Of a stretch of DNA of 64,000 bases, positions 3,721-50,491 are shown one piece after another (the first letter of the stretch is position 1; the number at the start of each line of letters is the position of its first letter). The stretch covers positions 1 to 64,000 of IMG/VR virus record IMGVR_UViG_3300036985_004421, one strand, 5' to 3'. Source of the DNA: a virus. The notes beneath the pieces are model-generated. The model saw nothing but the letters and a program-made list of their open reading frames with translations, had not been told where the DNA came from and did not search any database. A program made the translations under genes and the position numbers.

Positions 3721-3805
3721 TTTGAATTGGTTTTTAGTGGCATAGTTGCCGGTTGATATAAAACCTATTGGATTCTCCGATAGGGCAAGCGTATTCGTAT
3801 TAGAA

Positions 3806-27269: not shown

Positions 27270-27618
27270 CCATAAGGCATTTGCACAACTTGTAGCAGAT
27301 GAATGTGGGTACTCAGCCAGTACGTGTGAGCGCGTAATGGACTGTTACTGGAAAAACGTATTGGACGTTTTAGAGGAAAGCAAAATGGTCAGTGTATACA
27401 ACATTGGCATACAATTGATTTTAGCGGTGATTCCAGCACCTATAGAGCAACGCTTAAGATATCCTCGTGAAGAGAACTTGGCCGTCATTAAAACCAAGCC
27501 TAAAAAGAAGTATCTAAGGTATCAGGTACGTGTGGCTAAGTATCGATATTACAAATGGCTCTGGATGAAAAACCAAGGGCATCAATTCATTAAACTTAAA
27601 GGCGATGATTCAGAATAA
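27208..27618 (+). CDS. IHF/HU-like DNA-binding protein
   Basis: This 136-residue protein has a helical pair (HKAFAQLVADECGYSASTCE and VMDCYWKNVLDVLEES), then a beta strand, VSVYNIGIQL. That order is the HU/IHF fold, in which helices dimerise and a beta arm grips DNA. The C-terminal extension is basic (KTKPKKKYLRYQVRVAKYR), unusual for HU. It starts inside the ring gene. crAss-like phages are known to encode IHF-like proteins in this neighbourhood, so a packaging or DNA-bending role in the virion is likely. Confidence 0.8.
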   Translation: MEEGATTKWVHPLGVEEVEVNHKAFAQLVADECGYSASTCERVMDCYWKNVLDVLEESKMVSVYNIGIQLILAVIPAPIEQRLRYPREENLAVIKTKPKKKYLRYQVRVAKYRYYKWLWMKNQGHQFIKLKGDDSE

Positions 27619-28324
27619 AGCTTCAATTTATCAAGCCATTGACATGGCCAGACGTTTACTAGAAATAGAGCAGATGGGTTCTATCATGTCCGACTTCATA
27701 GAGTGGGCATGGGATGGTGAAAAGAAAATAGGTTCGTCCGTTACGTTCACCCGTAAGGAATGCTTTGTCGATATAGATGAAAATGGTGTGGGATGCTTGG
27801 AAAAAGATACGCTCTATATCCTAGGCATTGGCAAGACAGGCATGAAGATGGAGCAGTCTACTGCAGACTTTCAATTGTTCAATAAGAAATTGGTGAACAA
27901 CAATACTGGCTTTGCAATGGCCTCTACTGCATCAGCAAGTCAATACCTAGATGCATTGTATGGGTTCTACAACAACAGCCCAATGAAGTTCTCTGTGCAC
28001 AATGGACACATTTACATGGCTGGATATAAATCAGGTCAGGTGGCTATTGCATACAAAGGGGTATGCCTTGACGAAGAGGGTTATCCATTGGTAAATGAAC
28101 TGCATGTGGAAGCGTTAGCAGCGTTCCTAATCTATATGTACATACAGCGTGAATATCTGCGTGGCAGAGCGCCTAAATACCTGCATGACGATATGAAGCT
28201 TCGCTGGCTAGAGTTATGCGTACAGGCACGCTCTGAGGACGAAATGCCAAACCCACTAGACTTACGCATACTTAATGGCATCTGGAACAATATGCTACCA
28301 TTGGCCGACCTAAATAATTTCTGA
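27605..28324 (+). CDS. neck ring protein 3 (tail hub-side adaptor)
   Basis: This 239-residue protein (MIQNKASIYQAIDMARRLLE) contains SGQVAIAYKGVCLDEEGYPL, then a helical C-terminus. The phrase 'i.Y.g...DE.GyPlv.e.h.eAl..yi' is the usual signature of the third ring protein in crAss-like tails. It sits between the IHF-like gene and the muzzle gene and overlaps its predecessor by 14 bases. Confidence 0.7.
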   Translation: MIQNKASIYQAIDMARRLLEIEQMGSIMSDFIEWAWDGEKKIGSSVTFTRKECFVDIDENGVGCLEKDTLYILGIGKTGMKMEQSTADFQLFNKKLVNNNTGFAMASTASASQYLDALYGFYNNSPMKFSVHNGHIYMAGYKSGQVAIAYKGVCLDEEGYPLVNELHVEALAAFLIYMYIQREYLRGRAPKYLHDDMKLRWLELCVQARSEDEMPNPLDLRILNGIWNNMLPLADLNNF

Positions 28325-33521: not shown

Positions 33522-34424
33522 ATGGCATACGGAGGTAAGTTTTCATCAAAAGAAGATCTGAGCGGTAACCGTCAGGCATTACAAGTAGGGCGTGATTTCA
33601 AGCCATTGTCGGGAACTGATAAGGTATGGGCCGACCTAGCAGGGATGAATGAAGATGGCTCATGGAATGATTGGGGAAAAGCTAGAACCCAAATCATGAG
33701 TTGGTTTACAGGTGGAGCTCCTGTCGATACATTTCATAATATGCAAGCTGCACAAATCATGCGTAATCGCAATGATGATTATGGCAGGGCGTATGACCAA
33801 CATGGAGAAACGCTTGAGAGCAATCGGCAGTCTGCATTATGGAATAGAGATATTCAAGGTGGATTGGCAACTGCAGAGATTGTCAGCATGGGTAGCTCTA
33901 GTCCTATCACAACCACCGTAGCTAAAGGTTTGAGTGAAGGTGATGTATTTACCGACGCACTAGGTACAGAGGGTAAAGTCACAGCTGACGACATGACGCA
34001 AAAAGCCGATGAACTAGAGGGCTACACCACGCATGACGATATAAACGTAGTAGATGCTACTGGCTATGGTTTGAGTGAACAGGATAGGAAAGCATTGTCG
34101 GAGCGTACTCAAGCAGATAAGATTTTGAATAAAGCAGGTGGCTCACTTGTGAATAAAGTTGACCCTGTAAATCTAGCGTTGCAACAAAACCAACGTAATA
34201 CACAGAATAGCTTTGCGAATAATCAATCATCTGCTACTATGGCAGAGATAGAAGCAAAACAACAGGCAGGAGATTTTGCAGATAAAATTCCTGTGGTTGG
34301 AGAATTTGCAGCTTCAATTTACAATCAGGACATTCAGAACGATGTATGGTCGGCTACCATGAATGATGCAATCAATAGACTAGATAGAAGTTTCATGCTC
34401 GATTCGGGCGAATACATGTCATAA
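33522..34424 (+). CDS. probable ejected virion protein 1
   Basis: This 300-residue protein (MAYGGKFSSKEDLSGNRQAL) is Gln/Asn/Ala-rich and helical (NLALQQNQRNTQNSFANNQS). It directly follows the muzzle gene and precedes two similarly low-complexity proteins, the arrangement of crAss-like cargo proteins that are packed inside the tail or capsid and released on infection. Assignment is by position and composition. Confidence 0.6.
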   Translation: MAYGGKFSSKEDLSGNRQALQVGRDFKPLSGTDKVWADLAGMNEDGSWNDWGKARTQIMSWFTGGAPVDTFHNMQAAQIMRNRNDDYGRAYDQHGETLESNRQSALWNRDIQGGLATAEIVSMGSSSPITTTVAKGLSEGDVFTDALGTEGKVTADDMTQKADELEGYTTHDDINVVDATGYGLSEQDRKALSERTQADKILNKAGGSLVNKVDPVNLALQQNQRNTQNSFANNQSSATMAEIEAKQQAGDFADKIPVVGEFAASIYNQDIQNDVWSATMNDAINRLDRSFMLDSGEYMS

Positions 34425-36541
34425 TGATACAAGGACCTACCCCCAAAGAACGCTATGCTACATTACTAGCCAAGGCTAGAAATGGTCAACTACCATTTAA
34501 CCAACAGCAGTTAGTTGATATTTTCCAAAAGCTGATTATTAAAGCCGATAATACACCTGCTCAAGCAGTAGCTAGTGTAGACCTTGGCTTTAATCATTTG
34601 GATAAGATGCTTGAGAATTATCAGGGGTCTATCGACAAGCTTGGCACTAGTGTAGGCTCTAATCATTCTGCAGATGCTATTAAAAACAGCTATCAACTGA
34701 ACGATAAATGGGCCAAGTATTTTGATGAAAATGACATCAACTCGGAAGCGTTTACTACTGACGTTCTTAGAGAACTAACGATAGGCAAGCTAGAAGCGTA
34801 TGTTAATCACGCAAGTGACCTCAATGCTTATGGTAAATCAAAAGGTGTTACTGCTCAATTTGAGATAGGCAAAGGGCAAGTAATTGCGAAGTCTGTACCT
34901 AGCATGCCACAGGTAGAACGATTGGCTGCTGTATCTGATTTTAAGTTGATAGAAGCTGAAAGAAAGGATGCAGCACGCAAAGCATTGAAACCCGGCATTA
35001 TTTCAGATGCAAGAGCGTGGTTAAGCGACAACTACAATGTTGCTCAATCAATAGAGGAAGCTAAAGAGTCTGGCTTTAAGGCTTTGAATATTCAAAAGCA
35101 ATCAAAGGTTATTACAGCGAATCAGGCTGCAGACCAATATCATGAACTCAATGCACTCAAAATTGGTGAAGATGGTTCACTTGATGCTGTTAAAGCGTAC
35201 AGAGAAAAGCCCGTAACGCAGCGTATTAAGAGTGGTGGTCAGAAGCTTGCGGAAGCTGTCGCACAAGAAGAGGAAGCACAAGCGCAATCACCTTTAACTA
35301 TTAAGCCAAGACCTGCCGCGGCATCTACGCAGACAGCTACTGCGCCAGTAGCCAAACCAAGTGCACCAGTAGCTAGTGCACCAGTTATTGACCCATTGCC
35401 AAAAGGAGTTCCTACAGGGCCATACGATGCTCAAGCCCCAACGGGTGCTACTGACCAACAGGGTTTGCCAAGTGCCCCACAAGTACAAGGCTCATTAAAA
35501 CCAACTGACCCCAGTGCTCCGTTAATTCCAAAGCAACCACTTACCTCAGGAGTGGCTTCTCGTCAAGCGGCAATAGCAGAAGCTAAGAATGCTGCAGGTC
35601 AAGTACAGGATAAAGTCACAGGACAATGGCATGATAAAAACTCTCCCGAAGGGCAGAAAATTATGGCTGCATACAATACTGCTATAGCGGCTAATACTGC
35701 ACAGACAGCAGCGCAAACAGCAGCACAGACTCCATCGCCACAAGGGAGTGGGCAACCACAACCTGATCCAGAAAAAATGACTGGACAATTCCAAGAGGTA
35801 CTGGATGCGATGAAGCGTGGTGATACCAAAGGAAGTATTCTGAATGCTGCATCATTCCTACAGGACTTTACAGGCATGGTAGCAGGGCTGAATCAGATGG
35901 GCGACTCACAGCTTGAGGACTATGCTCCATCGAAGTATCTGAATGAAATGGTGCGTGTCACGCGCAACATGGCTGAAACAGGTACACCAGAAATTGTAGA
36001 GGAACAGCAAAGAGCTGATGTAAGAAGAGGGCTGGATGTTGATTTGGGCGTTGTTAAACAAGCTGCAGGTGGAAGTGGTGGTGCAGTTCTCGGAACAAGG
36101 TTTCAATCTATCAGAGATTACAATGATGCATTGGCTAAAGTGTCAGTACAGGATATGGAAGCTAAGTTTCGTGCTATGCCTATGTACATGGATGCCTTGG
36201 GTCAAATGGAAGCCGCACACAAAGAGCGTTATGCCAAGCGTTACGAAATGGAATTGGCTAGGCAGAATGCTGCTGCAGACTTGGTAAGTGGTAGTATCAA
36301 GAATATGCATAACGCAGCGCAGATGGAACAGTACTATGGTGCTGGTAGTGTCAACGCAGTTCTAAAATGGGCAGATGCTACCAAAATAGCCAAAGAGCGT
36401 GACAATATGGTAGTAGGTGGTAACGCATTGGCAGAAAATTTAGATACAACTAGCGGTGTAGGTCAAGGAGTAATGCCCACTTACACAGGAGGGTCAGGTG
36501 TAGGTCAAAGTCCTATTGTGAATAAAGTCGGAGGTAAATAA
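34424..36541 (+). CDS. probable ejected virion protein 2 with Ala/Pro-rich linker
   Basis: This 705-residue protein has a helical N-terminal region and a Pro/Ala/Thr-rich, likely disordered, linker near residues 290-365 (TATAPVAKPSAPVASAPVI). A helical C-terminal half ends in a glycine-rich tail. Long disordered linkers are common in proteins that must pass through the tail. It overlaps the preceding gene by one base. Confidence 0.6.
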   Translation: MIQGPTPKERYATLLAKARNGQLPFNQQQLVDIFQKLIIKADNTPAQAVASVDLGFNHLDKMLENYQGSIDKLGTSVGSNHSADAIKNSYQLNDKWAKYFDENDINSEAFTTDVLRELTIGKLEAYVNHASDLNAYGKSKGVTAQFEIGKGQVIAKSVPSMPQVERLAAVSDFKLIEAERKDAARKALKPGIISDARAWLSDNYNVAQSIEEAKESGFKALNIQKQSKVITANQAADQYHELNALKIGEDGSLDAVKAYREKPVTQRIKSGGQKLAEAVAQEEEAQAQSPLTIKPRPAAASTQTATAPVAKPSAPVASAPVIDPLPKGVPTGPYDAQAPTGATDQQGLPSAPQVQGSLKPTDPSAPLIPKQPLTSGVASRQAAIAEAKNAAGQVQDKVTGQWHDKNSPEGQKIMAAYNTAIAANTAQTAAQTAAQTPSPQGSGQPQPDPEKMTGQFQEVLDAMKRGDTKGSILNAASFLQDFTGMVAGLNQMGDSQLEDYAPSKYLNEMVRVTRNMAETGTPEIVEEQQRADVRRGLDVDLGVVKQAAGGSGGAVLGTRFQSIRDYNDALAKVSVQDMEAKFRAMPMYMDALGQMEAAHKERYAKRYEMELARQNAAADLVSGSIKNMHNAAQMEQYYGAGSVNAVLKWADATKIAKERDNMVVGGNALAENLDTTSGVGQGVMPTYTGGSGVGQSPIVNKVGGK

Positions 36542-36555
36542 TAAATCAAGCAGTC

Positions 36556-38031
36556 ATGATAAATCAAGGAGCTAGAACTCGTGCAATGAATGTGGAAAAG
36601 GATTTCTCCATTGCACTACAAGGTCAACGTGACCAACGTGAAGCACTCAATCGTGCTCAAGATGAAACCAGAAAAGACAATTTGGAATACGATGCTTTCT
36701 CCAAAGAGATAGCTGACCAAATGGGTCAATTCGGTAAGCTTGATATGCTTGAAAATGATGTGGCCGCGATACGTGGCGTAGAGCAAAGTGCTAGAAGTAA
36801 AGTTGCTGAATTGCTCCGTAAGCATGGTGGTGATGTACGTGCATTTATGCGTGCAGGTGGAGGTAAAAGTGCATTGGCCAATTATGCCAATACAATCAAG
36901 AACAGTAAAGAATACGGTAGTGGTGTATTCAATGCGCAAACATTTGACCTGATAAACAAGGCTGTAGAAAAAGGAGAAATACCTAATTATGTGGACATAG
37001 GCACACCCGATATGCCAAACCTAATTCCCATGCAAGAAGCTGTGAAACTCAAGGCGATGGGCAAGATAGATAGGGTGGCATGGAATGGTTCGTTTAAGCC
37101 TATGCAAATTTCCGACATCGCAGACATGACTAGGAACATTGTAAATCAAAGTGCTGATGCTAGAGAAGCTACTCCAAATGAAGTAAGAGCGATGTTCCGC
37201 GCTAAGAACCTACCTGATTGGTTTGTGGAGCAACAAGTAAACCAATATGAAAAAGAGTTTTTTGGAAAAGGTGGAGCCAAAAATCCTCTATGGATAGATG
37301 GCAATCAGGGCTTACGTCAGATACGTGAGAACAAATTGAATCGTGATGCTAGTGCTGATGCATTAGATAAAAAGTATGCAAATCAAACTATGCCAATAGC
37401 TCCAAGTGCTGAGGCATTACGCAATCCAAATAATTGGATGCAGCATCCAGTAGAACGTAAAGTTGCAGCACCTACAACGATGGGTCTGTATCAAACAAAA
37501 TTTTATGAAGAAGAAGATCCTCAAATGGCTACTGGCATTATGGTAGGTGGTAGGCCAAACAACGTATTGATAGAAGCTAAAAATGGTTCATTGACTGGCG
37601 TAAACATATCTGGTGACCCACAAATATTACCTGGGCGAATAGGTGGAACTGTAGCATCAATAGAGCAAACTTCTAATAACGCTTTTAAACGTAAAGACAT
37701 GATGCATAAAGCCACAAATACAATTGATAGATATACTGGCGATGTAATGAAAGCTATTGTTCCTATTGGTAGTGGAGGAACACCAACGGCTGATGGTAAA
37801 AACGAAGAGGTTTATTACGCAAAAGCAATTATGAAAACTCCATTAGATGAATTAGAGGATGATGTATGGTTTAAGCATACAGGAAGCACTGGACATACAG
37901 AATCTACCAAAGGTGTATTTGAGGAATACGAAGCGTGGATTCCTTGCACTGGCAATGTGATTGAACGTTTAACGCAATCCAACCAATTAGGTAAGAAGCA
38001 AGACGAGGCTGCTGGACGGCAAATACAGTGA
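36556..38031 (+). CDS. probable ejected virion protein 3
   Basis: This 491-residue protein (MINQGARTRAMNVEKDFSIA) has a long helical, charged N-terminus (DQREALNRAQDETRKDNLEY) and a mixed C-terminal part with SGGTPTADGKNEEVYYAKAI. It lies just before the giant polymerase-like protein, so it probably travels with it into the host. No motif was recognised. Confidence 0.6.
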   Translation: MINQGARTRAMNVEKDFSIALQGQRDQREALNRAQDETRKDNLEYDAFSKEIADQMGQFGKLDMLENDVAAIRGVEQSARSKVAELLRKHGGDVRAFMRAGGGKSALANYANTIKNSKEYGSGVFNAQTFDLINKAVEKGEIPNYVDIGTPDMPNLIPMQEAVKLKAMGKIDRVAWNGSFKPMQISDIADMTRNIVNQSADAREATPNEVRAMFRAKNLPDWFVEQQVNQYEKEFFGKGGAKNPLWIDGNQGLRQIRENKLNRDASADALDKKYANQTMPIAPSAEALRNPNNWMQHPVERKVAAPTTMGLYQTKFYEEEDPQMATGIMVGGRPNNVLIEAKNGSLTGVNISGDPQILPGRIGGTVASIEQTSNNAFKRKDMMHKATNTIDRYTGDVMKAIVPIGSGGTPTADGKNEEVYYAKAIMKTPLDELEDDVWFKHTGSTGHTESTKGVFEEYEAWIPCTGNVIERLTQSNQLGKKQDEAAGRQIQ

Positions 38032-38074: not shown

Positions 38075-41000
38075 ATGGATGAAGAATTGTTGCAACAGTT
38101 ACTTGACGAGCAAGCTGCTCAAGAAGGACAAGTACAAACTCAAACGGCAACCGCACCTGTGCAAGCCGAAGTTCCCACCCAACAAGTAGGAACTCAAATT
38201 AGCCCTATGAGAAACCCATTCATTACGCAACAGCGTAGGGATAGGGTTCCAACCAATAGCTGGATGGATGTAGTGATAGATGATCCAGTATCATCTGTGA
38301 AAGATTCCCCTGATGCCAAACATGTAGAAACGTTGAGTGATGAAGAAATCGCTCAGCGTTTGGAGTTTTTCGCCAACCCATCTAGCAATCCACAATGGAT
38401 GAAAGAAATGGAGCAAGACTCTGCAGGGTTTTTCAATGCGCGTAATGCCACCATTGAAGAAGCTGCAAAGCGTGAGAAAGAAATTAGTGGCAAGGAAAAA
38501 GACCCTAATGACTTCTGGAAGGAATACAATGGCCAGTTTGATGATGGCTCTGTTGGTAAAAAAGAACAGGACAAACGCAAGCTTGATACCTACTCTGCCA
38601 AAATGAAAGAGCAAGGTTCCTCTGATGAAGAAGTCGGAAACTTGGAATCTATTTGGAATGAATTGAAGAAAGCGAAAACAGGCGTGGAGTTAATACCACA
38701 CGCTTTGGTCAATGCTGTAACTGGTGTGCAAGAAACCATACACGACATGTCTATGGATGTAGTGTCGATAATGTATGGTTTAACTCCAAAAGAAACATTG
38801 ACGTTCAAGGCTGTGATGATGGACGGTGCTACGGCAAAGTTCATGGCTACAGGAGAGCGCAAAGATTTGAAAGCAGACATATATGACCGTTTCAGAGCAG
38901 GCTTGACGGAATATATGAATCAAGAAAATGATACTGTAGGAGCATTACCTACTAAGACATTCAATAAATCATGGGGTGAGGGTGATTATGTTGGGTCTTT
39001 AGTTGCAGGTTTTGGTGGTACAATGGGCCTTGTTCCTTCGGCTGTTGTGGGTGTAGGTACAATGGGATATGGTATGGTGCCATACATGGCAGGTATGGCG
39101 GAATCTGATAAGGCTGTCAATTCTCGTTTAGCTACTGGAAAAGAATTAGCTGACGCTTATCGCGATGGCGATAATGACCAACTAATGTCCTGGACGACCA
39201 GCTCTATTGTTGGTTATATTGAAAAACTAGGGTTAAAAAAGTTAGGCAAAGGAATCGAAGAAGCATTTAATGGTAAAGCATTAAAGGATAAAGCAGTTCG
39301 ATTCTTAAGCGACTCTGGCATTCAAGGTGCAACTGAAACATTCCAAGGTGGTATAGAGCACGTTGGTACTGCGTACAATAAAATCAAATTAGCCAATCCC
39401 GAAATGAGTGATGCCGAAGCTATGGCCAAGGCTGTCAAGGAAGGTGTATTATGGTATGGTTCTGGTGAAGCGTTCGAAACATTTGCTACTACAGCTCTAG
39501 GTGTGTCATACATGACGGGTGCTTCTCATGCTGCAGGTAAAGTATGGAGAAAGGCTACTGAAACTCAAGAGCAAAAGCTGGCCGCTAAACTGGATGACCC
39601 AAATGTTTCAGAAGCTAGTAAGACTATTCTCCGTGACAAGTTCAATCAGTTAAGGCAACAAGCATCTGCTGAGTACCAACAAGAGCGTACAATCTTCAAA
39701 TCGTTATCAGAAGAAGAGCAGTCAGAGTTAGGTTCTTTGGCTAGAAAAGTAAAAGATGCGGGTCTAACATTAGCTGTACTTGACCCAGAGGTTGACCAAG
39801 ATGCTATTCAAATTGCAGAACAAACCAAAGGAGAGTTATTGGCTCGTATTGATGCAATTAAAGCGCCTGTAAAAAAACAACTGTTAGAGAAGGATAAGGA
39901 GAAGCTTCGTAGTATGGGAGTTTATACTGTACCAATGGTTGATGGTGTTGTAAATCTTAATGCTAAAACGCAGCTTCATACAGAAGAGGAACAGAAGATT
40001 GCTGCAAAAGCTATTGACGAGATTATACAGACGGGGGTTAAAGAGAAGTTGCCTATACCTCAAATTGCAGCAAACATAGAGGCCTCTGGTCACATGGTAG
40101 GCGATGGGATATTGTTCACTACTCAAGAGTATGTGGAAATGGCTACTACTAAAGCATTGCCATCACTGATAGAAGCATTTGGAGATAAGACCAGTGCTAA
40201 GAATGTAGCAGTAGCAACTACAGAACTGCCTATTGAAGTGTCAACTGAAACTGCACCAGTAGAAGAAGTTGCTTCAACTACAGCTGTAACTGAACCAATT
40301 TCAAATGAAGCTGTAATTGCTGATATCGAACAAAGGAGAAGTGAGGAATTGGAATCAAATGGTTTGAATCGATTACTACCACTGAATATAGATGATGATC
40401 CTGTTTTGCAAAAAAAAATTGACCTTCAAAAAGAAATTGAAACTAAGTATGCTACTGAACTTTCTCAAGTTAAAGTACAAGCAGTAAAAACTCCAAGTAC
40501 TAATGCACTAGTACCGCCCACAACATCCAAAGCTGATGAAGTAATGGCTGCTGCTAAAGCTGCTATCGAAGGAGAGCGTGAAGTAGATGATTTACCCTTT
40601 GGCGTGAGTTCCGAAGCAAATAAAGAAAATGAGGCTGTGGCTACTGCCAGTGAGGAAATACAGGCTGAATCCGAATCTGAGTTAAATAAAGAAGAGGAAC
40701 CCGTTGCTGTAAAAAAAGCACCTGCTAAAAAGATTTCCAAACCTAAAGCACCTGCCAAACCAAAAGCCACCAAGAAACCAAAGGCCACTACTAAAAAGCC
40801 TGTAGCCAAGGAAAAGGAAAGTGCCCCAACTGTAACAAAGGAAGTTGCACCAGTAGCCGAATTACCAACCGACCCCGAAGCACGTAAAGAAGCAATTAAA
40901 GCGCGGAAAGCGGAGCTTATGAAGGGTATAGCAGAGCGATGGACAAGCAACAAATCTGGCATTGCTTCCTTGCCTGAGAACCAATCAGATGAAATGCGTC

Positions 41001-44000
41001 AGGACGTTGATGCTATTATTGAATTGGCCAAGTTGAGCATAGAGGAAATGGGCCAGTCACTCCAAGAGTTCGTGGACGAAATGGTAGTTGCCTTTGGAAA
41101 GAAGCACCCAAACATTACACAGCTCGCTACTGATGTTTACAATAGTGTAAGTCTAGGTGCTGATACAGCTACCAATGAAGTAAACGTATGGGTGAATGAA
41201 TTTTTGAATGCTGAACCTACTATTGAAAGTAGTCAAGCAATGCCTGTAGCAGAAAATGAAGAGCAACGGAAATTACGTAACTCTATTCTAGCTGTAGTCG
41301 ATAAAGCAATGCTTGCCGGTGGTGAATGGCTGCGTGAAAAAGACTTTAAGACTATCGGAGTAAACAGCCGTATGCGCAACTTTTTCAATAACCCTCATGC
41401 GTATATCATGATGAATGCGATTGATGGTTATTCAAGGAATTTGAAAGGCTACTCATTCATGAAAACTCTTCTGACCAAAGACGAAGCAATGAACATCATG
41501 CAGAATTTCGTTGAGGAAATTGACAAGATGGAAGAGCGTACTGGATTTAAGCTAGATAGTAAACGCATTAAAGCTCCATCGCACAATGATGTCAATGCAA
41601 TAGTAGAAGGGTTCTTTAAGCAATTCCAAGATGCATGGATAAATAAAGACCCTGAGAGTTATGCCATCTTTGACCAGTATGCACAATTAGTTAGGGGTAT
41701 TCCATCCATTAAGCCATCATTCCAAATGGCAGGACCAAATGAATGGTCAGACATAGGATTGAAGAGATTGGTTACAGGCCTATTCACAGAGTCAGGATTG
41801 ATGCTAGATCCAGAGGACATTACTCAAACCTTACAAAGCATAGCTGCTAGTGTGCCGAGAGAAGGTGGTAATAAAGAATGGATCAAGCTCATGCGCTCTA
41901 TAGCCAACGGTAAAAAAAGCCTAGAGCAAGATATAGCTGAACGTATGCTTAATCGTATTTCTGCACTGGTTGACCTTAATGCACAGAATGTAAACGATAG
42001 CGGAGAGCTTAAAGCTATCATCAACACATTGGCTAATATGGGTACTGACCAAGTAGTGGCCAGTGTCATAGGCACAGACGGAGTAGTACGCAGAGAAGTA
42101 ATGAATGTATCTATGGCGCCAAAGGAGATTGCTTCTAATGTGCTAGGTATGATTGAGAAGTACATGAGCCAATCACGGGCTATAAGCGCATTCAATTCGC
42201 TCATTACTGAATACAAAAATATCAGTATGGAAATTACAGCACAGATTAAAGCTGGTCGTCCATTAACCGTAGCGCAAGACGTTGCTTATTCACGAAGATT
42301 GCTTGAACTGTACCATCAGCGTATCATCCAACCTTACGGTGGTAAGATGGATATTAAGGGTGACTATGTAGGCGAAGTGATTAAGTCTATACAAGAAAAA
42401 GAATCAACCACACCTACGTGGATTCGCGTAGCTGGCATGCTTCAAATTTTGGATAATGCACAAGCGAAACAGAGAATCAATAGCAACAATACAATTGATG
42501 TACTGGAAAGCACTCGCCCGTATTATGAGTTGCTAGGCAAGGTAATGGTAGAAGCAGAGCCTAATGCTACATCATGGAGAAATGCAGATGGCGAAAACGT
42601 CACAGCACAAGGCCCTAGAACCCACGTAGACTTGGTATCTGATAGCATGAACATCCCTACGGAAAAGGGTGGTACTACACCTGCAGAGAAGATGCTCAAA
42701 GTGGGCTTCTTTCAAAACAATCCAATACTCAAGTTTTGGAATAAGACTAAAGCTGTAGGTCGCCAAAAATGGAACGAAGGAAGTTTCAAGAAGGAGTTTG
42801 GTATGTCCATAGATAAAATGCGATCGGATGGAATACTTGCGGATAACCTAGTTGCATTCTTTGAAGGAACTAAAGACGGATATCAGCACATGTATATGCT
42901 GAATGGTGACCGTGACACGCGCTATATGTTCAATGCACCACTAATGAATGTGGACCAACTTGCGGAGCAATATGGCATAATCAACGGAAAATTCGATTCT
43001 AACTCACCCATAGTAAAGGCATTTGAAAAGCGTGCTGCAGATGCCGTGGCTCTAGGTGTAAGTAAAAAAGACGGATTGCTATTGAATGAGGAAGGGCTAA
43101 AGAGATTGAATGCAACATACTACATTCAATTCAAAATAGCAGATGGCAAATTTGTGGCTGATGGCGATTTGACTTTGAAGCATAGGTTAAATGCGACCAA
43201 TACGTTGCTAAAAAAATTCGAAGAGTTGAATAAACAATGGGTGCAATATGATGGTATGTCATTGCGCTATGTGGATGCTGTTCAAGTTATGGCACGTAAA
43301 AATCCAGAGCTGGCTGAATTATTCAATCAAAACGTAGATGCCAATACACGTATGCGAAGATTAGCTGCGTTGTATGAGGGTAATAATACCATCAATGAGT
43401 TGGCGCTAACTGATGTGTTTGTAGGTGACCCAATCTATTTGCGCCCAGGGGCAAAAGCTTTGAAGGATGCAAAGAGTCAATCTACACGAGGTATGAACGT
43501 AGCATCTACAGTCGGTCCAGTTTATGTAGTTACGTTGAATGAATTACCTGCTACTGATTCTGGCGGATTCATGAACTCGTATATGAGTGAGCGTGCAAGC
43601 AATGGTGTAATCAATGGACTTGGGCCTAATATGAAGATAGGGTTCTTTGGAGTAGAACGCCATGGTAAAAATGCTGGACATGGCATGTCATTAAAAATGG
43701 CTACCATGAATGCGGTGCGAGGTAAAGATGGTAAGAACAAAATGGAATACGACCACGGAACTTCTGACCAGTACGCAAAGATGGCAGAGCTGATGGATAA
43801 ACTCGAAGCTCACATTATGGCCACTACTAAAAGTGATGTACGTCCGAATATATTGATTATTCCACCTTCATCACAAAAGGTTTCCTCGCTTAGATTAAAG
43901 CCAATCAATTTGAATGAGCTTAGTTCTTTGAGTTTCAATGAAAGCAACTTCAAAAAGATTACACCGGAAACAGCTACGGTGAACTTTAACATCAACCATG

Positions 44001-47000
44001 ATATGACTGATGGCGCTTATGCTAAACGCCAATTGGTACAGATGCTTTCCATTATACAGGAAGCGGTAGAAGGTAAAGAGCTACCTGACCGTAAGCAATT
44101 CATTGACAAGTTTCAAAACTTGATGGTGGATGTAATGAAGGAGCAAATGCGTAAGGAGTTTGGTAGCACTACCAATATCGGCCAAGTAGATGCACTAGCT
44201 AAAAAGTTAATTGAGCAAGTGTTTGGAAATGATATGTCATTCAGTACGAAAGCTGCACTACAGCATCTAAAGAACTTGTATGAGAATGAGAACGTTGACC
44301 ACCACATAGAGGACGAGAATATCTATGGTACAGCATTAGGTAAGCTAACTCAAACGTTTAATCAAGTAGCCACTACAATGCAGCTTGACGGTGGCTCACT
44401 TCAAACATTTGCCGACCTTGAAACCGACCCTGATAAAAAATTGAAATGGGATGGCCTGACTACACCAGAGGTAATGGTTCCACCTGCAATGGGTAATGTC
44501 GGTGATACGATTATTCTTGCGCGTGTACCATCATCAGGTTCTGAATCGATGTTTGTTGGTAAGATAGTAGGACACTTACCTGCTAATATGAATGGAGCTA
44601 AAGTACCTGCAGAGTTTTTGCTGTACTCTAACTCTGACCACGATGGAGATATGCTTCATGGCTTCCTAAAAAATCAATCAGGACCAGCCAAGCAAGCATT
44701 TGTAGACTTCATGATGTCAGATGAAGCAATGCTTTCACAGACCTTCTTACGCAAGCGCGACCACCCATTGACCCTAGATGCATTGGGAACAGCCTTGAAG
44801 CAGGCAGGGTTAGCAGAAGTGCCCGTAAATCTGAATAGTGTAACAGGAAGGATGGCAGTTCTGGACAGCATGAATGCATCTACTTCTGCTATTGGGGTGT
44901 TTGCCAATGCTAAAAAGATATTCACCAACTTAACTGCTTCGGGCAAGAGTACTGTGGAGGAAACGCACATTCTCCTAAATGGAGTAATGGTTCCAGCGAG
45001 AAAGTACAGCCATAAAAACCTGACCATGATGGGTGAATTGCTACAGGCTGCACTAGATAAGTTTGACAAGCTTCTTCTCTCTCGAATGGGAATTGATATG
45101 TCAAACATCAATGAAATATCATTGCTTGCCAATTTGGAAACGATAGATGGGGATGTAATGTCGTATGCTGATGTCATTCAGTTACTGCAGACACCCGAAA
45201 TGAAAGCCTATGTAGCTGGCATCAATGAATTGATTGGTCCATTTGAAGGAAAAGATACTGCATGGCCAGGTGATAAGACCACAATACTAGACGAGTTAAT
45301 TGCTAGTGCTCAAGCTAAAGGCAATGATTTGAATGTGGATATCCTCAGCTTGATTCGCACAGCAGTAGTTGAGGGCGCTGCATTAACCTCTGTGGCATCT
45401 ATGACTAGCATGGATAAGGGCATCAAATATGGCATGGGCCATGTGCTTCATTTGATGGATATGTATAACTCATTGAAAGCAGGTGGTAAGGGTTACCTTG
45501 AGTTATTTGATAACCCATTAGGAGAACACCATCACAAGGCTCTTGATATGTTTATCAAGACTATGCAAAAGCTTACGCTATCGTATGGTGAAGTAGCTAT
45601 TGGTACTGCAAAAAATCTTTGGAACGCAATCGGGTTTCAAGAAAGAAGCCCAAGGCATTGGGATAAGCTTCTGACCATTAACAATAAGATGCTGAATGCC
45701 TCTGTGACGTTGGGTAAGTACGACAATCCATCAGCGTTTGTTAATTCATTTGGAGAGTTTCTGTATGGGTTAAAGCATGGTAGCGATGTGATGTACCCAA
45801 TTAACTCAACTACAGCAGAAGAGATTGACAGCAGGGCTACTCTACAAGCTATGGAAATTGATGCTATCAATGCGCGTGAATCGTTGAAAGACAATCCAGT
45901 TCCTGTAATGCGTGAAGCTTATTTGAAAAAGATTCAAGACTATGTGATAGCACAGAACATGGTCAATAAGCTCACGAACAATCCTTTCATACGCAACATG
46001 TCCGTGTACAAGGATAAGGCAACAGGTAAAATCAATGTCGGCTTAAACAAAACAGCTAGAGGAATGAATGGCATTGATAAGCAAACCTTGCTTGATTCCT
46101 TTTCAGAGTTACCTACGGAATTTCAAGATAGGCTGCATGACTACTTGCTACTAAACTCAAACTCTAAGATTACCCCATCTTCCTTATGGTCACTATTGCC
46201 TAACAGTTCTGTAGAGCGATACAATACTGCAAGTAGATTGATGGAACAAAACAAAGGTCAGGTTACACCTACTGTTCGTCAAAACGTAGCTGCGTTCATC
46301 GAAGCTGTAATGTTGGATAGCCTGGACATGATAAAGGCTATTCGTATCAGAGCAGGTAGAGCATTTGAAAACACTTTCGTTTATGAAAAACCTCAATTAT
46401 CAGAGGACGAAAAAACTTCTTTGCTCAACCGATTGGAAACATACTTCCCATTGTCAGCTCAATCTATACTCGATCAGTCGGGTGCAGTGTTTAAGGTAAC
46501 ACATCCTTCCACAAGCTTTGGAACAAAATTACTTGGAAAGATGATGTTTAATGGAACTCCATTGATACGTGTAGCGAATGCTAATGGTGATGGACATCGC
46601 TATTTTGTACTGGCTAAATCAGATGGAGCATTGACTACTGCAGGTGGAGTATTCACGAAAGGTGTTGCTCAAACGTATGTGGAAATCACGGCAGGCGTAA
46701 ATGCTGCTGCAGCAAAAGGTACCAATGGATTTGTCATGGACGGAGATACCCGTTCACAGTACAATGCAGATGCTGTTTCAGAGGATATGCGTACACTATT
46801 CAAAGACCGTTTCAAAAATGTAAATGCAGATTTGAAAGAAGGAGTGCGCATGGAAACAGGAAATCACATGGGCACGATGAATGCGCCAGCTTCTGCTACA
46901 CGAACTATCGCAAGTGACCCTAAGCTATACAATAAAATACTTAAGCGATTACAGGAGAAGTTTCCGAACATTCAAGTCATGGAGTGGGAAGCCTATCAAG

Positions 47001-50000
47001 CAAAGTATGGTGCTGCTCCGGGTATTGGTCAAGCGCGTCAAGCTACTATGCTAGATGGTATCGAACGTGCCGTTGCTTGGTCAATGTCAGAAGGACATAT
47101 TGATACACCACCACACGAGTTTGCTCACCATTATGTATGGATGTTTAAGAATCACCCATTGATACAAAGGGGTATTGAATTGTATGGTTCAGAAGAAGCT
47201 TTGGTAGACGCGATTGGCAAAGACTATGTACGTCAGATAAACGGTAATGCAGTACAGCAAGCCTACTCTAAATTAGTAGCTGGCATGAAGGGCTTTGTTG
47301 AAAACCAAGCGGCTAAAGAAGGGTATGCGCAAGCGTTCTGGACATACATCAGGTCAATCTTTGGTTCTAATGACATTGCTCAGGTACTGGCATCAAATAT
47401 GCTTGAGGGTAAAGAGCTAGAAGGTGGAGGTACATTAGCTAATGAAGTAGGCAACATGGTTGGTCGTACACAGCTACGTTCTAATGCTCGGCAGTTTATG
47501 GATAGCGATGTAATTCCTCATAAGGTCAACAGGGCTGATGCTGATGTGAATAATTCTACTCTTCAATTTCGAATTGCATCATTAAACATTCTAGGTAAGT
47601 TGATTCAAAACGACATCCAAGCTCAACGATTACAGCAGGGTATTGGTAGCAGTTTCTTATTCGATGTAATTCAGAATGTTCCTGGGGTGAGTTCTACAGA
47701 TATGTGGAACACAGAGCAATTCTCAAAAGAGATAACAGCTGCTTTAAAACAGATGGTTTTCAAACCTGCAGACGAGTATTGTAAATCATCAATACTTTCT
47801 GGTGACATCAAAAACATTGACCCGTTGTTTATGGCAAATAGCTTTGAAGCTGACGTAGCCAAGTTGCTAAACTTGAATACTAACATGGGTGCTAATTCTG
47901 GTATGGTAAACGGATTGATCGCTTTGATGTACAATCCTAGCGACCCATTGAATAGTGCATCTATGATGGGCAAAGGTCTAAGTGCAATGGAGCAAGCAGA
48001 AGTACGTCAAGCTTACAATGCCATTATTCGCACGCATGCCATGATTGAGCATCAAAAAGTTGCATCTACTCAATTGAACATTGCCGAAGGGGAAGTAGCG
48101 GAAACCTCTAAGGTGCTAACTACAATCAATGATTCTATTGCAAGCAAAGCGTCCATACTCAAAAAGATATGGTTGGCCAGCTCTACTGGCGATGGATTTG
48201 TAAGCAGCATTGGTAAAGGATTCAGAGAAGCTTACAAGTTTTATCAGGATAAGTTTGACCGACTTGATGTGAAGGTTTTTGCGATCACAGGCGATGAAAG
48301 TGCTCCGTTGTATCAAGTGCTTGTGCAATCATTCAAAACAGCACAGAATAGGTACAACATGCTTTATCTAGGCACTACTTCTAACAAAGGAGCAGGGTTC
48401 ATGTGGCAAGATGGTATCAAGAACATCAAAGGACTAGGTGATATTACGTATGACACAGCAGGTCAAGGTGTGGTATGGAAATTAAAAGATACCACTCCTG
48501 TGGAAATGATGGTAGCTGATGTCACTAATGGCATTACTACTTACGTTCCGGTTACACAACCAATGAGTGTAGGTGAGAAAGTGTGGTTGTCCGTAATGGC
48601 CCAACAAGTAGATGCTAAAACAGGCACCAGTTTCCGTGATGTATTGAAAGATGGTGGCATAGGGTTTGGCACTAAGCGTAATGCTACAGACACCATGGAA
48701 ACTAAGTATCGTTTTACCGAAGCACAGATTGTGGCCATAGAAAACGAAGTCGCAGCTTATCAAGGCGGTGTACTTAATAGAGAGCTAGTTCCTGCAATAC
48801 GTCAAGTGTTTGATAAGATGGTACCGTACATCAACCAAACTTACAAGGAACTGACAGGACTAGATATGGAAATCGACCCTGACTACTTCCCAAAAACCAT
48901 GTTTAATTCAGAAAAACTATTAGGGTCGGGTGAGCACGTGACTGGTGAGTGGGATAGAGTTATTTCTCCATTGGGTATTATTGGTTCATCAGTAACGCTA
49001 CAAGCTCAAGATATCTTTAGCATGATGCATGACTACACTAAAAAAGGTGCGGAGTTTCATGCCTACGCTATTCCTATTCGTAATGCTGGAAAACTATTGA
49101 AAGGCAAAGATGCCGAAGGAGTTTCCTTGCACAATGCATTGATGAAAGTAGGAATGGGAGAGCACTTGACTGATGTTACCAAACACTTGATGGGAGTAGT
49201 CAATCATGCACATACGTTAGGTAGTGGTGACCGCAAGTTAAATGAGCAAAATGAAATTGAGTTTCAACACAAAATGCTTCATAAACTCCATGCACGCTTG
49301 ACCACATTTGCATTAGGTCACAATATGGTGGTAAACGCTACTCAGTTACTAGGTGGACCTATGGCCAGTCAACGCATTCCATGGAAGTACTTACAGTCGG
49401 ATGTATTAAGGCTTGACAAAACAATCATGTCACTAGGCGAAACCTTAAACATGAATAAGCTATTTACGATGGATAGCGTATTTGATTATGCGAACACTAC
49501 CATGCCAGAGTATCATGAAATGTTAGCGCATAGTGCCGACTTGTACGCTCGATTCAAAACCAAGTTGATTGACAGCTCACAGGAAGCCACCATGCAATCC
49601 GTATCAGGTGGTAAGGAAGATAAGATTCTATGGATGATAAAACCTTCAACGTTATTGGCAGGTATTACCTACATGGACTTACAAGTTCAAAGAACCATCT
49701 GGAATGCAGCTAAGAAAATGACAGCAGATTTGCAGCCACAATTAGCTGTAGGTAGCACAGAGTATTGGGAACACGTAGCTGCTGTAGCAGAGGATGTAAC
49801 TCGTGAAACTCAAGCTTCGTTTGATAATGTGAATCGAACTAGAGCACAGAACAATCCAGGATATAACTTCTGGTCATACTTCCAACGGTTCTCTTCTCAA
49901 TCTGTAGCTATGGCATCACAGATGAAAAAGGCACATTACCAATCGGTTCACAATCCTACTCCCGCAAATAGAATGCATGAGTATAGAGCTGCCGCTGCAT

Positions 50001-50491
50001 TTCTTTTAGTAAACTCAGCTGGTTATGCTGCTATACGAATGCTAAAAGATGAAGCAATGTTCCATGCAGCTCTTGAATTGTTTGGCTATGCTACTTTAGA
50101 TTATCCAGAAGCAGACGACCCTGATATGACGGACGATGAAAAGAAAGCTTTATTTTTCATAATGAAAACCATCAATTCAGCTTTGAATATAGCGCCAATA
50201 GTAGGTGAGCTTGGAGCTGCTGCATCAACATTCTTTTTTAATTACTTGATAACCAAAGATGCAGCACAAGCAGGTAGTAAAGTTGTAAGTCATGCAGCTA
50301 TAACCTTTCCTCAACTAGAAGTACCTGGCTTAGTTGCTTCTGGTGTAAAGAAAATATCAGAAGATGATTTGGTGCATGGCTATTGGGATTTATGGAAAGC
50401 TGGTGTTACTGGTTCAGGTCTGTCGGGTTCTTATTTTAGGGAAGCCGATGCTTTTAACAAAATTGCTGTGCCACAAAAATTCGATAAATAA
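38075..50491 (+). CDS. giant fusion: crAss-type virion RNA polymerase plus zincin-like domain
   Basis: This is a 4138-residue single open frame. Visible regions in order: a Gln/Thr-rich N-terminus; a Gly-rich hydrophobic stretch near 305-350 (FGGTMGLVPSAVVGVGTMGY); a Lys/Ala/Pro-rich linker near 883-920; and GVERHGKNAGHG near 1859-1870, reminiscent of the RNA polymerase beta double-psi barrel. Next come SDHDGD at 2187-2192, matching the beta-prime DxDGD catalytic triad, and HEFAHH at 3014-3019, a HExxH zinc-protease motif. Hydrophobic helices lie near 3972-4075. crAss-like phages are known to carry a virion RNA polymerase with this DxDGD signature, which injects and transcribes early genes. 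Here it appears fused to much extra sequence, perhaps for membrane passage and self-cleavage. Confidence 0.85.
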   Translation: MDEELLQQLLDEQAAQEGQVQTQTATAPVQAEVPTQQVGTQISPMRNPFITQQRRDRVPTNSWMDVVIDDPVSSVKDSPDAKHVETLSDEEIAQRLEFFANPSSNPQWMKEMEQDSAGFFNARNATIEEAAKREKEISGKEKDPNDFWKEYNGQFDDGSVGKKEQDKRKLDTYSAKMKEQGSSDEEVGNLESIWNELKKAKTGVELIPHALVNAVTGVQETIHDMSMDVVSIMYGLTPKETLTFKAVMMDGATAKFMATGERKDLKADIYDRFRAGLTEYMNQENDTVGALPTKTFNKSWGEGDYVGSLVAGFGGTMGLVPSAVVGVGTMGYGMVPYMAGMAESDKAVNSRLATGKELADAYRDGDNDQLMSWTTSSIVGYIEKLGLKKLGKGIEEAFNGKALKDKAVRFLSDSGIQGATETFQGGIEHVGTAYNKIKLANPEMSDAEAMAKAVKEGVLWYGSGEAFETFATTALGVSYMTGASHAAGKVWRKATETQEQKLAAKLDDPNVSEASKTILRDKFNQLRQQASAEYQQERTIFKSLSEEEQSELGSLARKVKDAGLTLAVLDPEVDQDAIQIAEQTKGELLARIDAIKAPVKKQLLEKDKEKLRSMGVYTVPMVDGVVNLNAKTQLHTEEEQKIAAKAIDEIIQTGVKEKLPIPQIAANIEASGHMVGDGILFTTQEYVEMATTKALPSLIEAFGDKTSAKNVAVATTELPIEVSTETAPVEEVASTTAVTEPISNEAVIADIEQRRSEELESNGLNRLLPLNIDDDPVLQKKIDLQKEIETKYATELSQVKVQAVKTPSTNALVPPTTSKADEVMAAAKAAIEGEREVDDLPFGVSSEANKENEAVATASEEIQAESESELNKEEEPVAVKKAPAKKISKPKAPAKPKATKKPKATTKKPVAKEKESAPTVTKEVAPVAELPTDPEARKEAIKARKAELMKGIAERWTSNKSGIASLPENQSDEMRQDVDAIIELAKLSIEEMGQSLQEFVDEMVVAFGKKHPNITQLATDVYNSVSLGADTATNEVNVWVNEFLNAEPTIESSQAMPVAENEEQRKLRNSILAVVDKAMLAGGEWLREKDFKTIGVNSRMRNFFNNPHAYIMMNAIDGYSRNLKGYSFMKTLLTKDEAMNIMQNFVEEIDKMEERTGFKLDSKRIKAPSHNDVNAIVEGFFKQFQDAWINKDPESYAIFDQYAQLVRGIPSIKPSFQMAGPNEWSDIGLKRLVTGLFTESGLMLDPEDITQTLQSIAASVPREGGNKEWIKLMRSIANGKKSLEQDIAERMLNRISALVDLNAQNVNDSGELKAIINTLANMGTDQVVASVIGTDGVVRREVMNVSMAPKEIASNVLGMIEKYMSQSRAISAFNSLITEYKNISMEITAQIKAGRPLTVAQDVAYSRRLLELYHQRIIQPYGGKMDIKGDYVGEVIKSIQEKESTTPTWIRVAGMLQILDNAQAKQRINSNNTIDVLESTRPYYELLGKVMVEAEPNATSWRNADGENVTAQGPRTHVDLVSDSMNIPTEKGGTTPAEKMLKVGFFQNNPILKFWNKTKAVGRQKWNEGSFKKEFGMSIDKMRSDGILADNLVAFFEGTKDGYQHMYMLNGDRDTRYMFNAPLMNVDQLAEQYGIINGKFDSNSPIVKAFEKRAADAVALGVSKKDGLLLNEEGLKRLNATYYIQFKIADGKFVADGDLTLKHRLNATNTLLKKFEELNKQWVQYDGMSLRYVDAVQVMARKNPELAELFNQNVDANTRMRRLAALYEGNNTINELALTDVFVGDPIYLRPGAKALKDAKSQSTRGMNVASTVGPVYVVTLNELPATDSGGFMNSYMSERASNGVINGLGPNMKIGFFGVERHGKNAGHGMSLKMATMNAVRGKDGKNKMEYDHGTSDQYAKMAELMDKLEAHIMATTKSDVRPNILIIPPSSQKVSSLRLKPINLNELSSLSFNESNFKKITPETATVNFNINHDMTDGAYAKRQLVQMLSIIQEAVEGKELPDRKQFIDKFQNLMVDVMKEQMRKEFGSTTNIGQVDALAKKLIEQVFGNDMSFSTKAALQHLKNLYENENVDHHIEDENIYGTALGKLTQTFNQVATTMQLDGGSLQTFADLETDPDKKLKWDGLTTPEVMVPPAMGNVGDTIILARVPSSGSESMFVGKIVGHLPANMNGAKVPAEFLLYSNSDHDGDMLHGFLKNQSGPAKQAFVDFMMSDEAMLSQTFLRKRDHPLTLDALGTALKQAGLAEVPVNLNSVTGRMAVLDSMNASTSAIGVFANAKKIFTNLTASGKSTVEETHILLNGVMVPARKYSHKNLTMMGELLQAALDKFDKLLLSRMGIDMSNINEISLLANLETIDGDVMSYADVIQLLQTPEMKAYVAGINELIGPFEGKDTAWPGDKTTILDELIASAQAKGNDLNVDILSLIRTAVVEGAALTSVASMTSMDKGIKYGMGHVLHLMDMYNSLKAGGKGYLELFDNPLGEHHHKALDMFIKTMQKLTLSYGEVAIGTAKNLWNAIGFQERSPRHWDKLLTINNKMLNASVTLGKYDNPSAFVNSFGEFLYGLKHGSDVMYPINSTTAEEIDSRATLQAMEIDAINARESLKDNPVPVMREAYLKKIQDYVIAQNMVNKLTNNPFIRNMSVYKDKATGKINVGLNKTARGMNGIDKQTLLDSFSELPTEFQDRLHDYLLLNSNSKITPSSLWSLLPNSSVERYNTASRLMEQNKGQVTPTVRQNVAAFIEAVMLDSLDMIKAIRIRAGRAFENTFVYEKPQLSEDEKTSLLNRLETYFPLSAQSILDQSGAVFKVTHPSTSFGTKLLGKMMFNGTPLIRVANANGDGHRYFVLAKSDGALTTAGGVFTKGVAQTYVEITAGVNAAAAKGTNGFVMDGDTRSQYNADAVSEDMRTLFKDRFKNVNADLKEGVRMETGNHMGTMNAPASATRTIASDPKLYNKILKRLQEKFPNIQVMEWEAYQAKYGAAPGIGQARQATMLDGIERAVAWSMSEGHIDTPPHEFAHHYVWMFKNHPLIQRGIELYGSEEALVDAIGKDYVRQINGNAVQQAYSKLVAGMKGFVENQAAKEGYAQAFWTYIRSIFGSNDIAQVLASNMLEGKELEGGGTLANEVGNMVGRTQLRSNARQFMDSDVIPHKVNRADADVNNSTLQFRIASLNILGKLIQNDIQAQRLQQGIGSSFLFDVIQNVPGVSSTDMWNTEQFSKEITAALKQMVFKPADEYCKSSILSGDIKNIDPLFMANSFEADVAKLLNLNTNMGANSGMVNGLIALMYNPSDPLNSASMMGKGLSAMEQAEVRQAYNAIIRTHAMIEHQKVASTQLNIAEGEVAETSKVLTTINDSIASKASILKKIWLASSTGDGFVSSIGKGFREAYKFYQDKFDRLDVKVFAITGDESAPLYQVLVQSFKTAQNRYNMLYLGTTSNKGAGFMWQDGIKNIKGLGDITYDTAGQGVVWKLKDTTPVEMMVADVTNGITTYVPVTQPMSVGEKVWLSVMAQQVDAKTGTSFRDVLKDGGIGFGTKRNATDTMETKYRFTEAQIVAIENEVAAYQGGVLNRELVPAIRQVFDKMVPYINQTYKELTGLDMEIDPDYFPKTMFNSEKLLGSGEHVTGEWDRVISPLGIIGSSVTLQAQDIFSMMHDYTKKGAEFHAYAIPIRNAGKLLKGKDAEGVSLHNALMKVGMGEHLTDVTKHLMGVVNHAHTLGSGDRKLNEQNEIEFQHKMLHKLHARLTTFALGHNMVVNATQLLGGPMASQRIPWKYLQSDVLRLDKTIMSLGETLNMNKLFTMDSVFDYANTTMPEYHEMLAHSADLYARFKTKLIDSSQEATMQSVSGGKEDKILWMIKPSTLLAGITYMDLQVQRTIWNAAKKMTADLQPQLAVGSTEYWEHVAAVAEDVTRETQASFDNVNRTRAQNNPGYNFWSYFQRFSSQSVAMASQMKKAHYQSVHNPTPANRMHEYRAAAAFLLVNSAGYAAIRMLKDEAMFHAALELFGYATLDYPEADDPDMTDDEKKALFFIMKTINSALNIAPIVGELGAAASTFFFNYLITKDAAQAGSKVVSHAAITFPQLEVPGLVASGVKKISEDDLVHGYWDLWKAGVTGSGLSGSYFREADAFNKIAVPQKFDK

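What the first reader, a model, noticed from the sequence alone, without database searches (positions are those of the whole stretch)
38075..50491. 4138-residue single protein joining an RNA polymerase-type DxDGD active site to a HExxH protease motif
SDHDGD at residues 2187-2192 and GVERHGKNAGHG near 1859-1870 resemble the beta-prime and beta double-psi barrel signatures of cellular-type RNA polymerases. HEFAHH at 3014-3019 is a zincin motif, and hydrophobic segments lie at both ends. crAss-like phages are known to use a virion-packaged polymerase of this type, but the fused metalloprotease-like domain and the size here are striking. A plausible inference is an injected polymerase that passes through the tail, anchors at the membrane and is cut by its own protease.
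Basis: partly seen in the sequence, partly recalled or inferred. Interest (0 to 1): 0.92.

Follow-up and report, generated by a model that had tools for sequence, protein, structure and literature searches.

The report
Fused, injected crAss-like phage RNA polymerase
A distant relative of the common gut crAss phages packs its injected RNA polymerase and a protease-like partner into one giant protein; its relatives keep these parts separate and appear to link them end to end through single terminal cysteines, which would be a new way to deliver proteins into a cell in order.

Summary
The 4138-residue ORF is real, lies under strong purifying selection, and belongs to a crassvirus-like phage (crass capsid, ring and muzzle proteins). 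Residues 1520-2560 are a two-barrel RNA polymerase: the AlphaFold model's best solved match is the phi14:2 virion RNA polymerase 6VR4 (E 1.4e-18). SDHDGD is the beta'-type active site. The cited GVERHGKNAGHG is not conserved; the likely beta-barrel signature is two lysines flanking it (K1854, K1874). HEFAHH belongs to a conserved HExxH...E zincin-like domain. In most relatives the polymerase and zincin halves are two adjacent genes, so the window protein is a gene fusion. Zincins near crass polymerases are already annotated, and P23-45 has a polymerase-metallopeptidase tape protein, so this is a new variant of a known kind. The zincin persists where the parts are separate, which argues against self-cutting as its main role. 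New and striking: across Crassvirales, separate cargo proteins share one rule: a cysteine at the C-terminus of each upstream protein and one at residues 2-8 of the next, often their only cysteines (52 of 71 adjacent pairs; 0.012 expected). Fused versions lack both. I propose disulfide-linked, head-to-tail cargo chains. The bond itself is untested.

The parts
38075..50491 (+). Giant cargo ORF, 4138 aa: N-terminal module, linker, two-barrel RNA polymerase, zincin-like domain, C-terminal helical module in one polypeptide
   Evidence: sister homologue of 4309 aa at 62% identity; purifying selection
40172..40909 (+). Variable K/P/A-rich linker (about residues 700-945) between the N-terminal module and the polymerase part
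   Evidence: identity to the sister falls to 32% at residues 701-800, with about 130 extra residues in the sister
42632..45754 (+). RNA polymerase module, residues 1520-2560
   Evidence: AlphaFold2 pLDDT 76.9, pTM 0.78; Foldseek best PDB match 6vr4_A, E 1.4e-18, TMq 0.67
43634..43696 (+). Conserved lysines K1854 and K1874, the likely beta-type barrel lysines, flanking the non-conserved GVERHGKNAGHG
   Evidence: K355 of alignment A7 invariant and K335 nearly invariant in 18 sequences; role assigned by analogy with two-barrel RNAPs
44636..44650 (+). DHDGD catalytic motif (2188-2192), beta'-type barrel
   Evidence: invariant in 18 sequences apart from the variable second residue; aligned with crass DFDxD by hhalign, E 2.9e-10
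46712..46816 (+). Approximate fusion junction (residues about 2880-2914), where relatives have a stop and the start of a second gene
   Evidence: ORF ends and starts of 11 relatives relative to the motifs
46883..47404 (+). Zincin-like domain; HEFAH 3014-3018 (47114-47128), third ligand candidate E3041 (47195-47197)
   Evidence: H, E, H and E invariant in 15 sequences; domain shared by about 40 other phage contigs
47780..47782 (+). The only cysteine of the 4138-aa protein (C3236); none near the junction or either terminus
   Evidence: cargo ORFs have 0.37 Cys per 1000 aa versus 11.2 in other window ORFs, Fisher p 1e-17
48692..50044 (+). Conserved C-terminal helical module, residues about 3540-3990
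   Evidence: 24% identity to the second ORF of L020 over 451 residues, E 5e-19
34424..36541 (+). Cargo protein C1 by gene order (705 aa, no Cys)
   Evidence: position between muzzle and polymerase as in crAss001 gp45; no sequence match found
36556..38031 (+). Cargo protein C2 by gene order (491 aa)
   Evidence: position as in crAss001 gp46; no sequence match found
28327..33516 (+). Muzzle protein (tail tip)
   Evidence: Pfam crAss_MUZ, E 1.6e-73
27605..28324 (+). Tail ring protein 1
   Evidence: Pfam CrAss_Ring_1, E 4e-18
26469..27269 (+). Tail ring protein 2
   Evidence: Pfam CrAss_Ring_2, E 1.5e-20
24938..25633 (+). Tail ring protein 3/4
   Evidence: Pfam CrAss_Ring_3_4, E 8e-10
22873..24255 (+). 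Major capsid protein
   Evidence: Pfam Crass_capsid, E 1.9e-22
19549..21777 (+). Portal protein
   Evidence: phrog_6547, E 1.9e-54
17606..19549 (+). Terminase large subunit
   Evidence: phrog_6681; about 21-25% identity to crass terminases

Best explanation
The ORF encodes the virion-packaged RNA polymerase of a deep-branching crassvirus-like phage, with proteins that are separate in relatives fused into one chain: an N-terminal cargo module, the two-barrel polymerase (phi14:2 g066 type), and a zincin-bearing C-terminal module that occupies the place of g065. Shown by sequence and model: the polymerase fold and active site, the zincin signature, the fusion, and the crass virion context. Inferred: late expression, packing in the capsid, extrusion in a partly unfolded state through the tail, refolding in the host, and transcription of early phage genes. 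I further propose that the cargo must leave as one continuous chain. Where the modules are separate proteins, the upstream protein's C-terminal cysteine and the next protein's N-terminal cysteine form a disulfide in the virion that is broken in the reducing cytoplasm; in the window a peptide bond replaces it. The cysteine pattern is shown; the bond and its role are inferred. The zincin is probably an active peptidase acting during entry on envelope, host or cargo proteins; its target is unknown.
For: Polymerase: crass DFDxD profile finds 6VR4 at E 1e-31; window clade versus that profile P 96.8, E 2.9e-10; AF2 model matches 6VR4 at E 1.4e-18, then P32 gp64, P74 gp62 and P23-45 gp96 phage RNAPs. 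Virion context: crass capsid, rings, muzzle and cargo order. Fusion: 11 relatives have two ORFs overlapping or within 26 nt where the window has one; L063 and L066 are also fused. Cysteine pattern: derived from IMG/VR loci, then met in phi14:2 (g067 C1797; g066 C3 and C2179; g065 C3) and in crAss001 (gp47 C2339; gp50 C5 and C2404; gp49 C5), where gp47 and gp50 are encoded on opposite strands, in further Crassvirales genomes, and in four more fetched afterwards. Of 71 non-redundant adjacent pairs, 52 have both cysteines versus 0.012 expected; other CDS 1 of 49 at each end. Fused giants lack the pair. Disulfides are seen elsewhere in the crAss001 virion (PMC10172136).
Against: No experiment on this phage or protein; no isolate of its clade was found in the phage collection. 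No disulfide has been seen between cargo proteins. The zincin half was modelled poorly (pLDDT 53.7), so its fold rests on conserved residues. That the N-terminal module equals g067 rests on position, not sequence. Two adjacent pairs (L034, L038) lack the cysteines, with an extra ORF inserted there, unexplained. The pairs are related by descent, so 71 is not 71 independent trials.
Confidence: 0.72

Rival explanations
1. Self-processing polyprotein: the zincin cuts the giant chain, for example near residue 2900, to give separate polymerase and C-terminal proteins in the virion or after injection.
For: The zincin lies just after the place where relatives have separate genes, and its zinc ligands are conserved. 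Zincins recur in crass cargo proteins.
Against: The zincin is just as conserved where the halves are already separate ORFs, and relatives often carry a second zincin upstream of the polymerase. No cleavage site is recognisable.
Confidence: 0.2
2. The terminal cysteines serve another purpose: homodimerisation of like ends, shared metal binding, or attachment to portal or membrane proteins rather than linking successive cargo proteins.
For: No bond has been observed; some Intestiviridae C1 proteins also end in a cysteine without a partner at the next N-terminus.
Against: The pattern is directional: the first protein of a chain lacks the N-terminal cysteine and the last lacks the C-terminal one; middle proteins have both; fusion removes the pair. 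Homodimers or metal sites predict none of this.
Confidence: 0.25
3. Non-virion or inactive polymerase: the enzyme is made late and acts inside the producing cell, or is a decayed remnant kept for structural reasons.
For: Nothing here shows packaging or activity; the beta-like barrel is very divergent.
Against: Catalytic aspartates and one lysine are invariant across 18 sequences; cysteine depletion matches injected proteins, including N4 vRNAP with none in 3500 aa; the crAss001 and phi14:2 counterparts are found in virions (PMC10172136; annotation).
Confidence: 0.07

Closest known systems
Virion RNA polymerase g066 of Cellulophaga phage phi14:2 (PDB 6VR4), with g067 and g065
   Same: Two-barrel single-chain polymerase fold, DxDxD active site, late cargo position; HExxH motif in the following protein g065
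   Different: Three separate proteins there, bounded by the terminal-cysteine pattern; one chain without junction cysteines here; catalytic motif DHDGD instead of DFDID
crAss001 cargo proteins gp45-gp50 and p-crAssphage gp44/gp45
   Same: Same gene order after the muzzle; gp45 of p-crAssphage is annotated as RNAP-associated protein fused to zincin, gp44 as RNAP fused to another subunit
   Different: Not all modules are in one ORF in those; all in one ORF here
P23-45 gp96 tape measure protein (5002 aa)
   Same: Virion RNAP, metallopeptidase and membrane segments in one giant protein (PMC10770324)
   Different: Tape measure protein of a long-tailed phage with RNAP at the N-terminus; weaker structural match (8h2m, E 5.5e-3)
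Phage N4 gp50 virion RNA polymerase (3500 aa)
   Same: Giant injected single-chain polymerase, no cysteines
   Different: Unrelated T7-type polymerase fold (general knowledge)

Membership tests
crAss-like two-barrel virion RNA polymerase | Two double-psi barrels in one chain with the crass RNAP fold | tested here: met
   AF2 model to 6VR4, E 1.4e-18, TMq 0.67; barrels were not inspected one by one
crAss-like two-barrel virion RNA polymerase | DxDxD catalytic motif preceded by R(I/V)P and P-x-E | tested here: met
crAss-like two-barrel virion RNA polymerase | Conserved barrel lysines | tested here: met
   K1874 invariant, K1854 nearly invariant in 18 sequences
crAss-like two-barrel virion RNA polymerase | Packaged in the virion and active | not testable with these tools
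   no isolate; inferred from gene order
Crassvirales virion | Crass capsid, ring and muzzle proteins, portal and terminase | tested here: met
Crassvirales virion | IHF-like gene in the structural block | not tested
   listed as a signature in PMC7886860; small ORFs were not scanned
Zincin metallopeptidase (gluzincin-like) | HExxH plus downstream Glu ligand | tested here: met
   H3014, E3015, H3018, E3041 invariant in 15 sequences
Zincin metallopeptidase (gluzincin-like) | Zincin fold | tested here: inconclusive
   model pLDDT 53.7; no convincing Pfam or PDB match
Terminal-cysteine cargo chain (proposed here) | C-terminal Cys in the upstream and N-terminal Cys in the downstream protein | tested here: not met
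   the window protein is the fused form and has neither; its split relatives meet it

The most novel reading that the evidence does not exclude
Crass-type phages string their giant injected proteins head to tail by disulfides between a C-terminal cysteine of one and an N-terminal cysteine of the next, so that polymerase and partner proteins are pulled through the tail in a fixed order and released in the reducing cytoplasm; gene fusion, as in the window, is the interchangeable alternative to each link.
Probability: 0.55. Interest if true: 0.9.

Novelty: new variant of a known kind. Interest (0 to 1): 0.74.

Why it matters
How megadalton polymerase cargo passes a tail channel with constrictions under 50 angstroms (PMC10172136), in what order, and how it is let go is open. 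The window protein shows that cargo proteins otherwise separate can be one chain. Comparing it with its split relatives exposed a cysteine rule that holds across crassviruses, including cultured ones, and predicts exact linked peptides. That makes ordered, covalent cargo delivery directly testable with existing isolates and possibly existing mass spectrometry data. I found no report of it in the papers I could search, though the phi14:2 polymerase paper and the 2018 crass genome paper were not readable here.

Tried and rejected
Family and structure searches with the whole protein gave nothing useful; DNA and protein searches of isolate phages with the window polymerase gave no match. Find-related scans with one or two sequences found only the sister phage; a three-sequence zincin alignment opened the wider set. 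A DNA pattern for SDHDGDML mostly hit an unrelated 538-aa protein family. GVERHGKNAGHG as a polymerase signature was rejected. The zincin AlphaFold model was too weak to search with, so that fold search was not run. The genome collection scan returned contigs binned under bacterial names, judged likely to be misplaced phage contigs and not used for host assignment. Considered and dropped: a split-intein or trans-splicing origin of the terminal cysteines, because the ORFs abut with no room for intein halves; lipidation, because the N-terminal cysteines follow no signal peptide.

Full report
Observation. The ORF 38075-50491 (+) is a single open frame of 4138 codons. Shuffled versions of the protein contain DxDGD in 5.2% and HExxH in 6.7% of cases, so conservation matters more than presence. 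A sister phage, IMGVR_UViG_3300044655_001189, encodes a 4309-aa homologue with 62% identity, although its portal is 95% identical. dN/dS between the two ORFs is about 0.08-0.26 in every block where dS is not saturated, so the chain, including the stretch across the junction described below, is maintained.

The phage. The window lies in a 69,830-base virus record. It carries a crass capsid protein, ring proteins 1, 2 and 3/4 and a muzzle protein by Pfam, and portal and terminase by PHROGs. Its terminase is only about 21-25% identical to those of known crass phages. Two ORFs just upstream of the giant gene occupy the places of crAss001 cargo proteins gp45 and gp46.

The polymerase. Whole-protein searches found nothing useful. 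A zincin alignment of three sequences retrieved 41 IMG/VR loci, and a second alignment around DxDGD retrieved 24, partly the same contigs. Crass-type DFDxD regions from these loci form a profile that matches the solved phi14:2 polymerase 6VR4 at E 1.1e-31. The window clade aligns to that profile with probability 96.8, E 2.9e-10, placing RVPSSG...PAEF...SNSDHDGD on RIPxQG...PxEI...SGxDFDxD. In an 18-sequence alignment D2188, D2190, G2191, D2192 and K1874 are invariant, and K1854, R2150 and K1797 nearly so. The AlphaFold2 model of residues 1520-2560 (pLDDT 76.9, pTM 0.78) has 6VR4 as its best PDB match at E 1.4e-18 and TM 0.67, followed by the P32, P74 and P23-45 phage polymerases. I did not inspect each barrel in the model.

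The zincin. HExxH plus a glutamate 23 residues after the second histidine (E3041) are invariant in 15 sequences. The domain is shared by many phage giant proteins. The model of this half is poor (pLDDT 53.7), so activity and fold are inferred from the residues. Zincins next to crass polymerases are already annotated: p-crAssphage gp45, and Rudgehvirus jaberico carries a ZnMc note. P23-45 gp96 combines virion RNAP and metallopeptidase (PMC10770324).

Fusion. In eleven relatives the polymerase ORF (about 2800-3600 aa, often with its own upstream zincin) is followed, overlapping or within 26 nt, by an ORF of 1090-1203 aa where complete that carries the zincin about 130-160 residues from its start. 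The window, its sister, L063 and L066 have both in one ORF. The junction in the window is near residues 2880-2914. Because the zincin is retained in split relatives, freeing the halves from each other cannot be its general role.

The cysteine rule. In the split relatives the polymerase protein usually has a single cysteine, in its last few residues, and the next protein a single cysteine near its start. Chains of three or four proteins have middle members with both (L026, L028, L056). The first member lacks the N-terminal one and the last lacks the C-terminal one, with rare exceptions such as L033, whose cluster may extend upstream. Fused giants lack the pair: the window protein has one cysteine in 4138 residues, at 3236, and the sister none. 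I then looked at genomes not used to see the pattern. In phi14:2, g067 has only C1797 (its last residue), g066 only C3 and C2179, g065 only C3. In crAss001, gp47 has only C2339 of 2341, gp50 has C5, C1334 and C2404, gp49 only C5; gp47 is encoded on the opposite strand from gp50 and gp49, so this is not an effect of gene adjacency. The pairs in the further genomes follow it, and so do four genomes fetched afterwards (cr8_1, cr108_1, ctbg_1, Dulem 42). In several gut crassviruses the proteins also hold a few internal cysteines, but the terminal ones are still there. Two apparent exceptions are start-site choices: crAss002 has an in-frame ATG giving MSC and the annotated start of cr11_1 gives MSC.

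Counting. Among 71 non-redundant adjacent pairs of ORFs of at least 700 aa, 52 have a cysteine within the last 11 residues upstream and the first 8 downstream, against 0.012 expected from each protein's length and cysteine count. Pairs without both are mostly the C2-to-first-cargo boundary, where the rule has no link, plus L034 and L038, where an extra ORF intervenes and which I cannot explain. Among 49 other proteins of crAss001 and phi14:2 only one has a cysteine in each terminal range. The pairs share ancestry, so they are not independent trials; the different breakpoints and unlike flanking sequences argue that selection acts on the cysteines themselves. N4 vRNAP, a single injected 3500-aa chain, has no cysteines.

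Mechanism proposed. Cargo proteins must be partly unfolded to pass the tail (PMC10172136). A chain joined end to end would thread in a fixed order. Disulfides exist elsewhere in crAss001 virions and would be reduced in the cytoplasm. A fused gene, as here, does the same with a peptide bond. The sequence pattern is shown; bond formation, order of threading and release are inferred. Published crAss001 mass spectrometry compared reduced and non-reduced virions, and the linked peptides predicted are given in the next steps.

Novelty. The window protein is a new variant of the crass virion polymerase: all modules in one ORF. The cysteine rule was found in no paper I could search, but two key papers could not be read, so I treat its novelty as likely, not established.

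Noticed in passing
L089, L091, L092-L103, L106-L109 and IMG/VR loci L020-L083: C-terminal and N-terminal cysteines at the boundaries of successive giant crass cargo proteins, often the only cysteines they have; treated in the report as the main new observation.
   Followed up: yes
L049:2-17977: A cargo ORF of at least 5992 aa with two crass-type DxDxD motifs, at 1945 (DFDGD) and 5291 (DFDID), with a zincin between them and a single cysteine at its last residue; possibly two polymerase cores in one chain.
   Followed up: no
L108:4238-15828 (cr108_1): The polymerase frame is broken between AGSD and YDIDKMY, inside the DxDxD motif itself, by about 290 bases, consistent with an intron at the active-site codons.
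   Followed up: no
L100:11621 (crAss002 gp33): The annotated start of the polymerase gene is probably 32 codons too early; the in-frame ATG at 11717 gives MSC like other crass polymerases.
   Followed up: partly
L034:11592-13748 and L038:11331-13628: ORFs of 719 and 766 aa sit between cargo proteins that lack the expected junction cysteines.
   Followed up: no
window:51069-52577: 502-aa protein with 20 cysteines and a weak SprB or Hoc-like C-terminal match, just after the cysteine-poor cargo genes.
   Followed up: no
L005 (MT835645.1): Unannotated human fecal contig, apparently with TAG read as Gln, with a 5334-aa polymerase ORF ending in KKC followed by a zincin protein starting MFCPN.
   Followed up: partly
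L061-L080, polymerase ORFs about 1100-1300 residues before DxDGD: Many relatives have a second HExxH domain upstream of the polymerase that the window protein lacks.
   Followed up: partly
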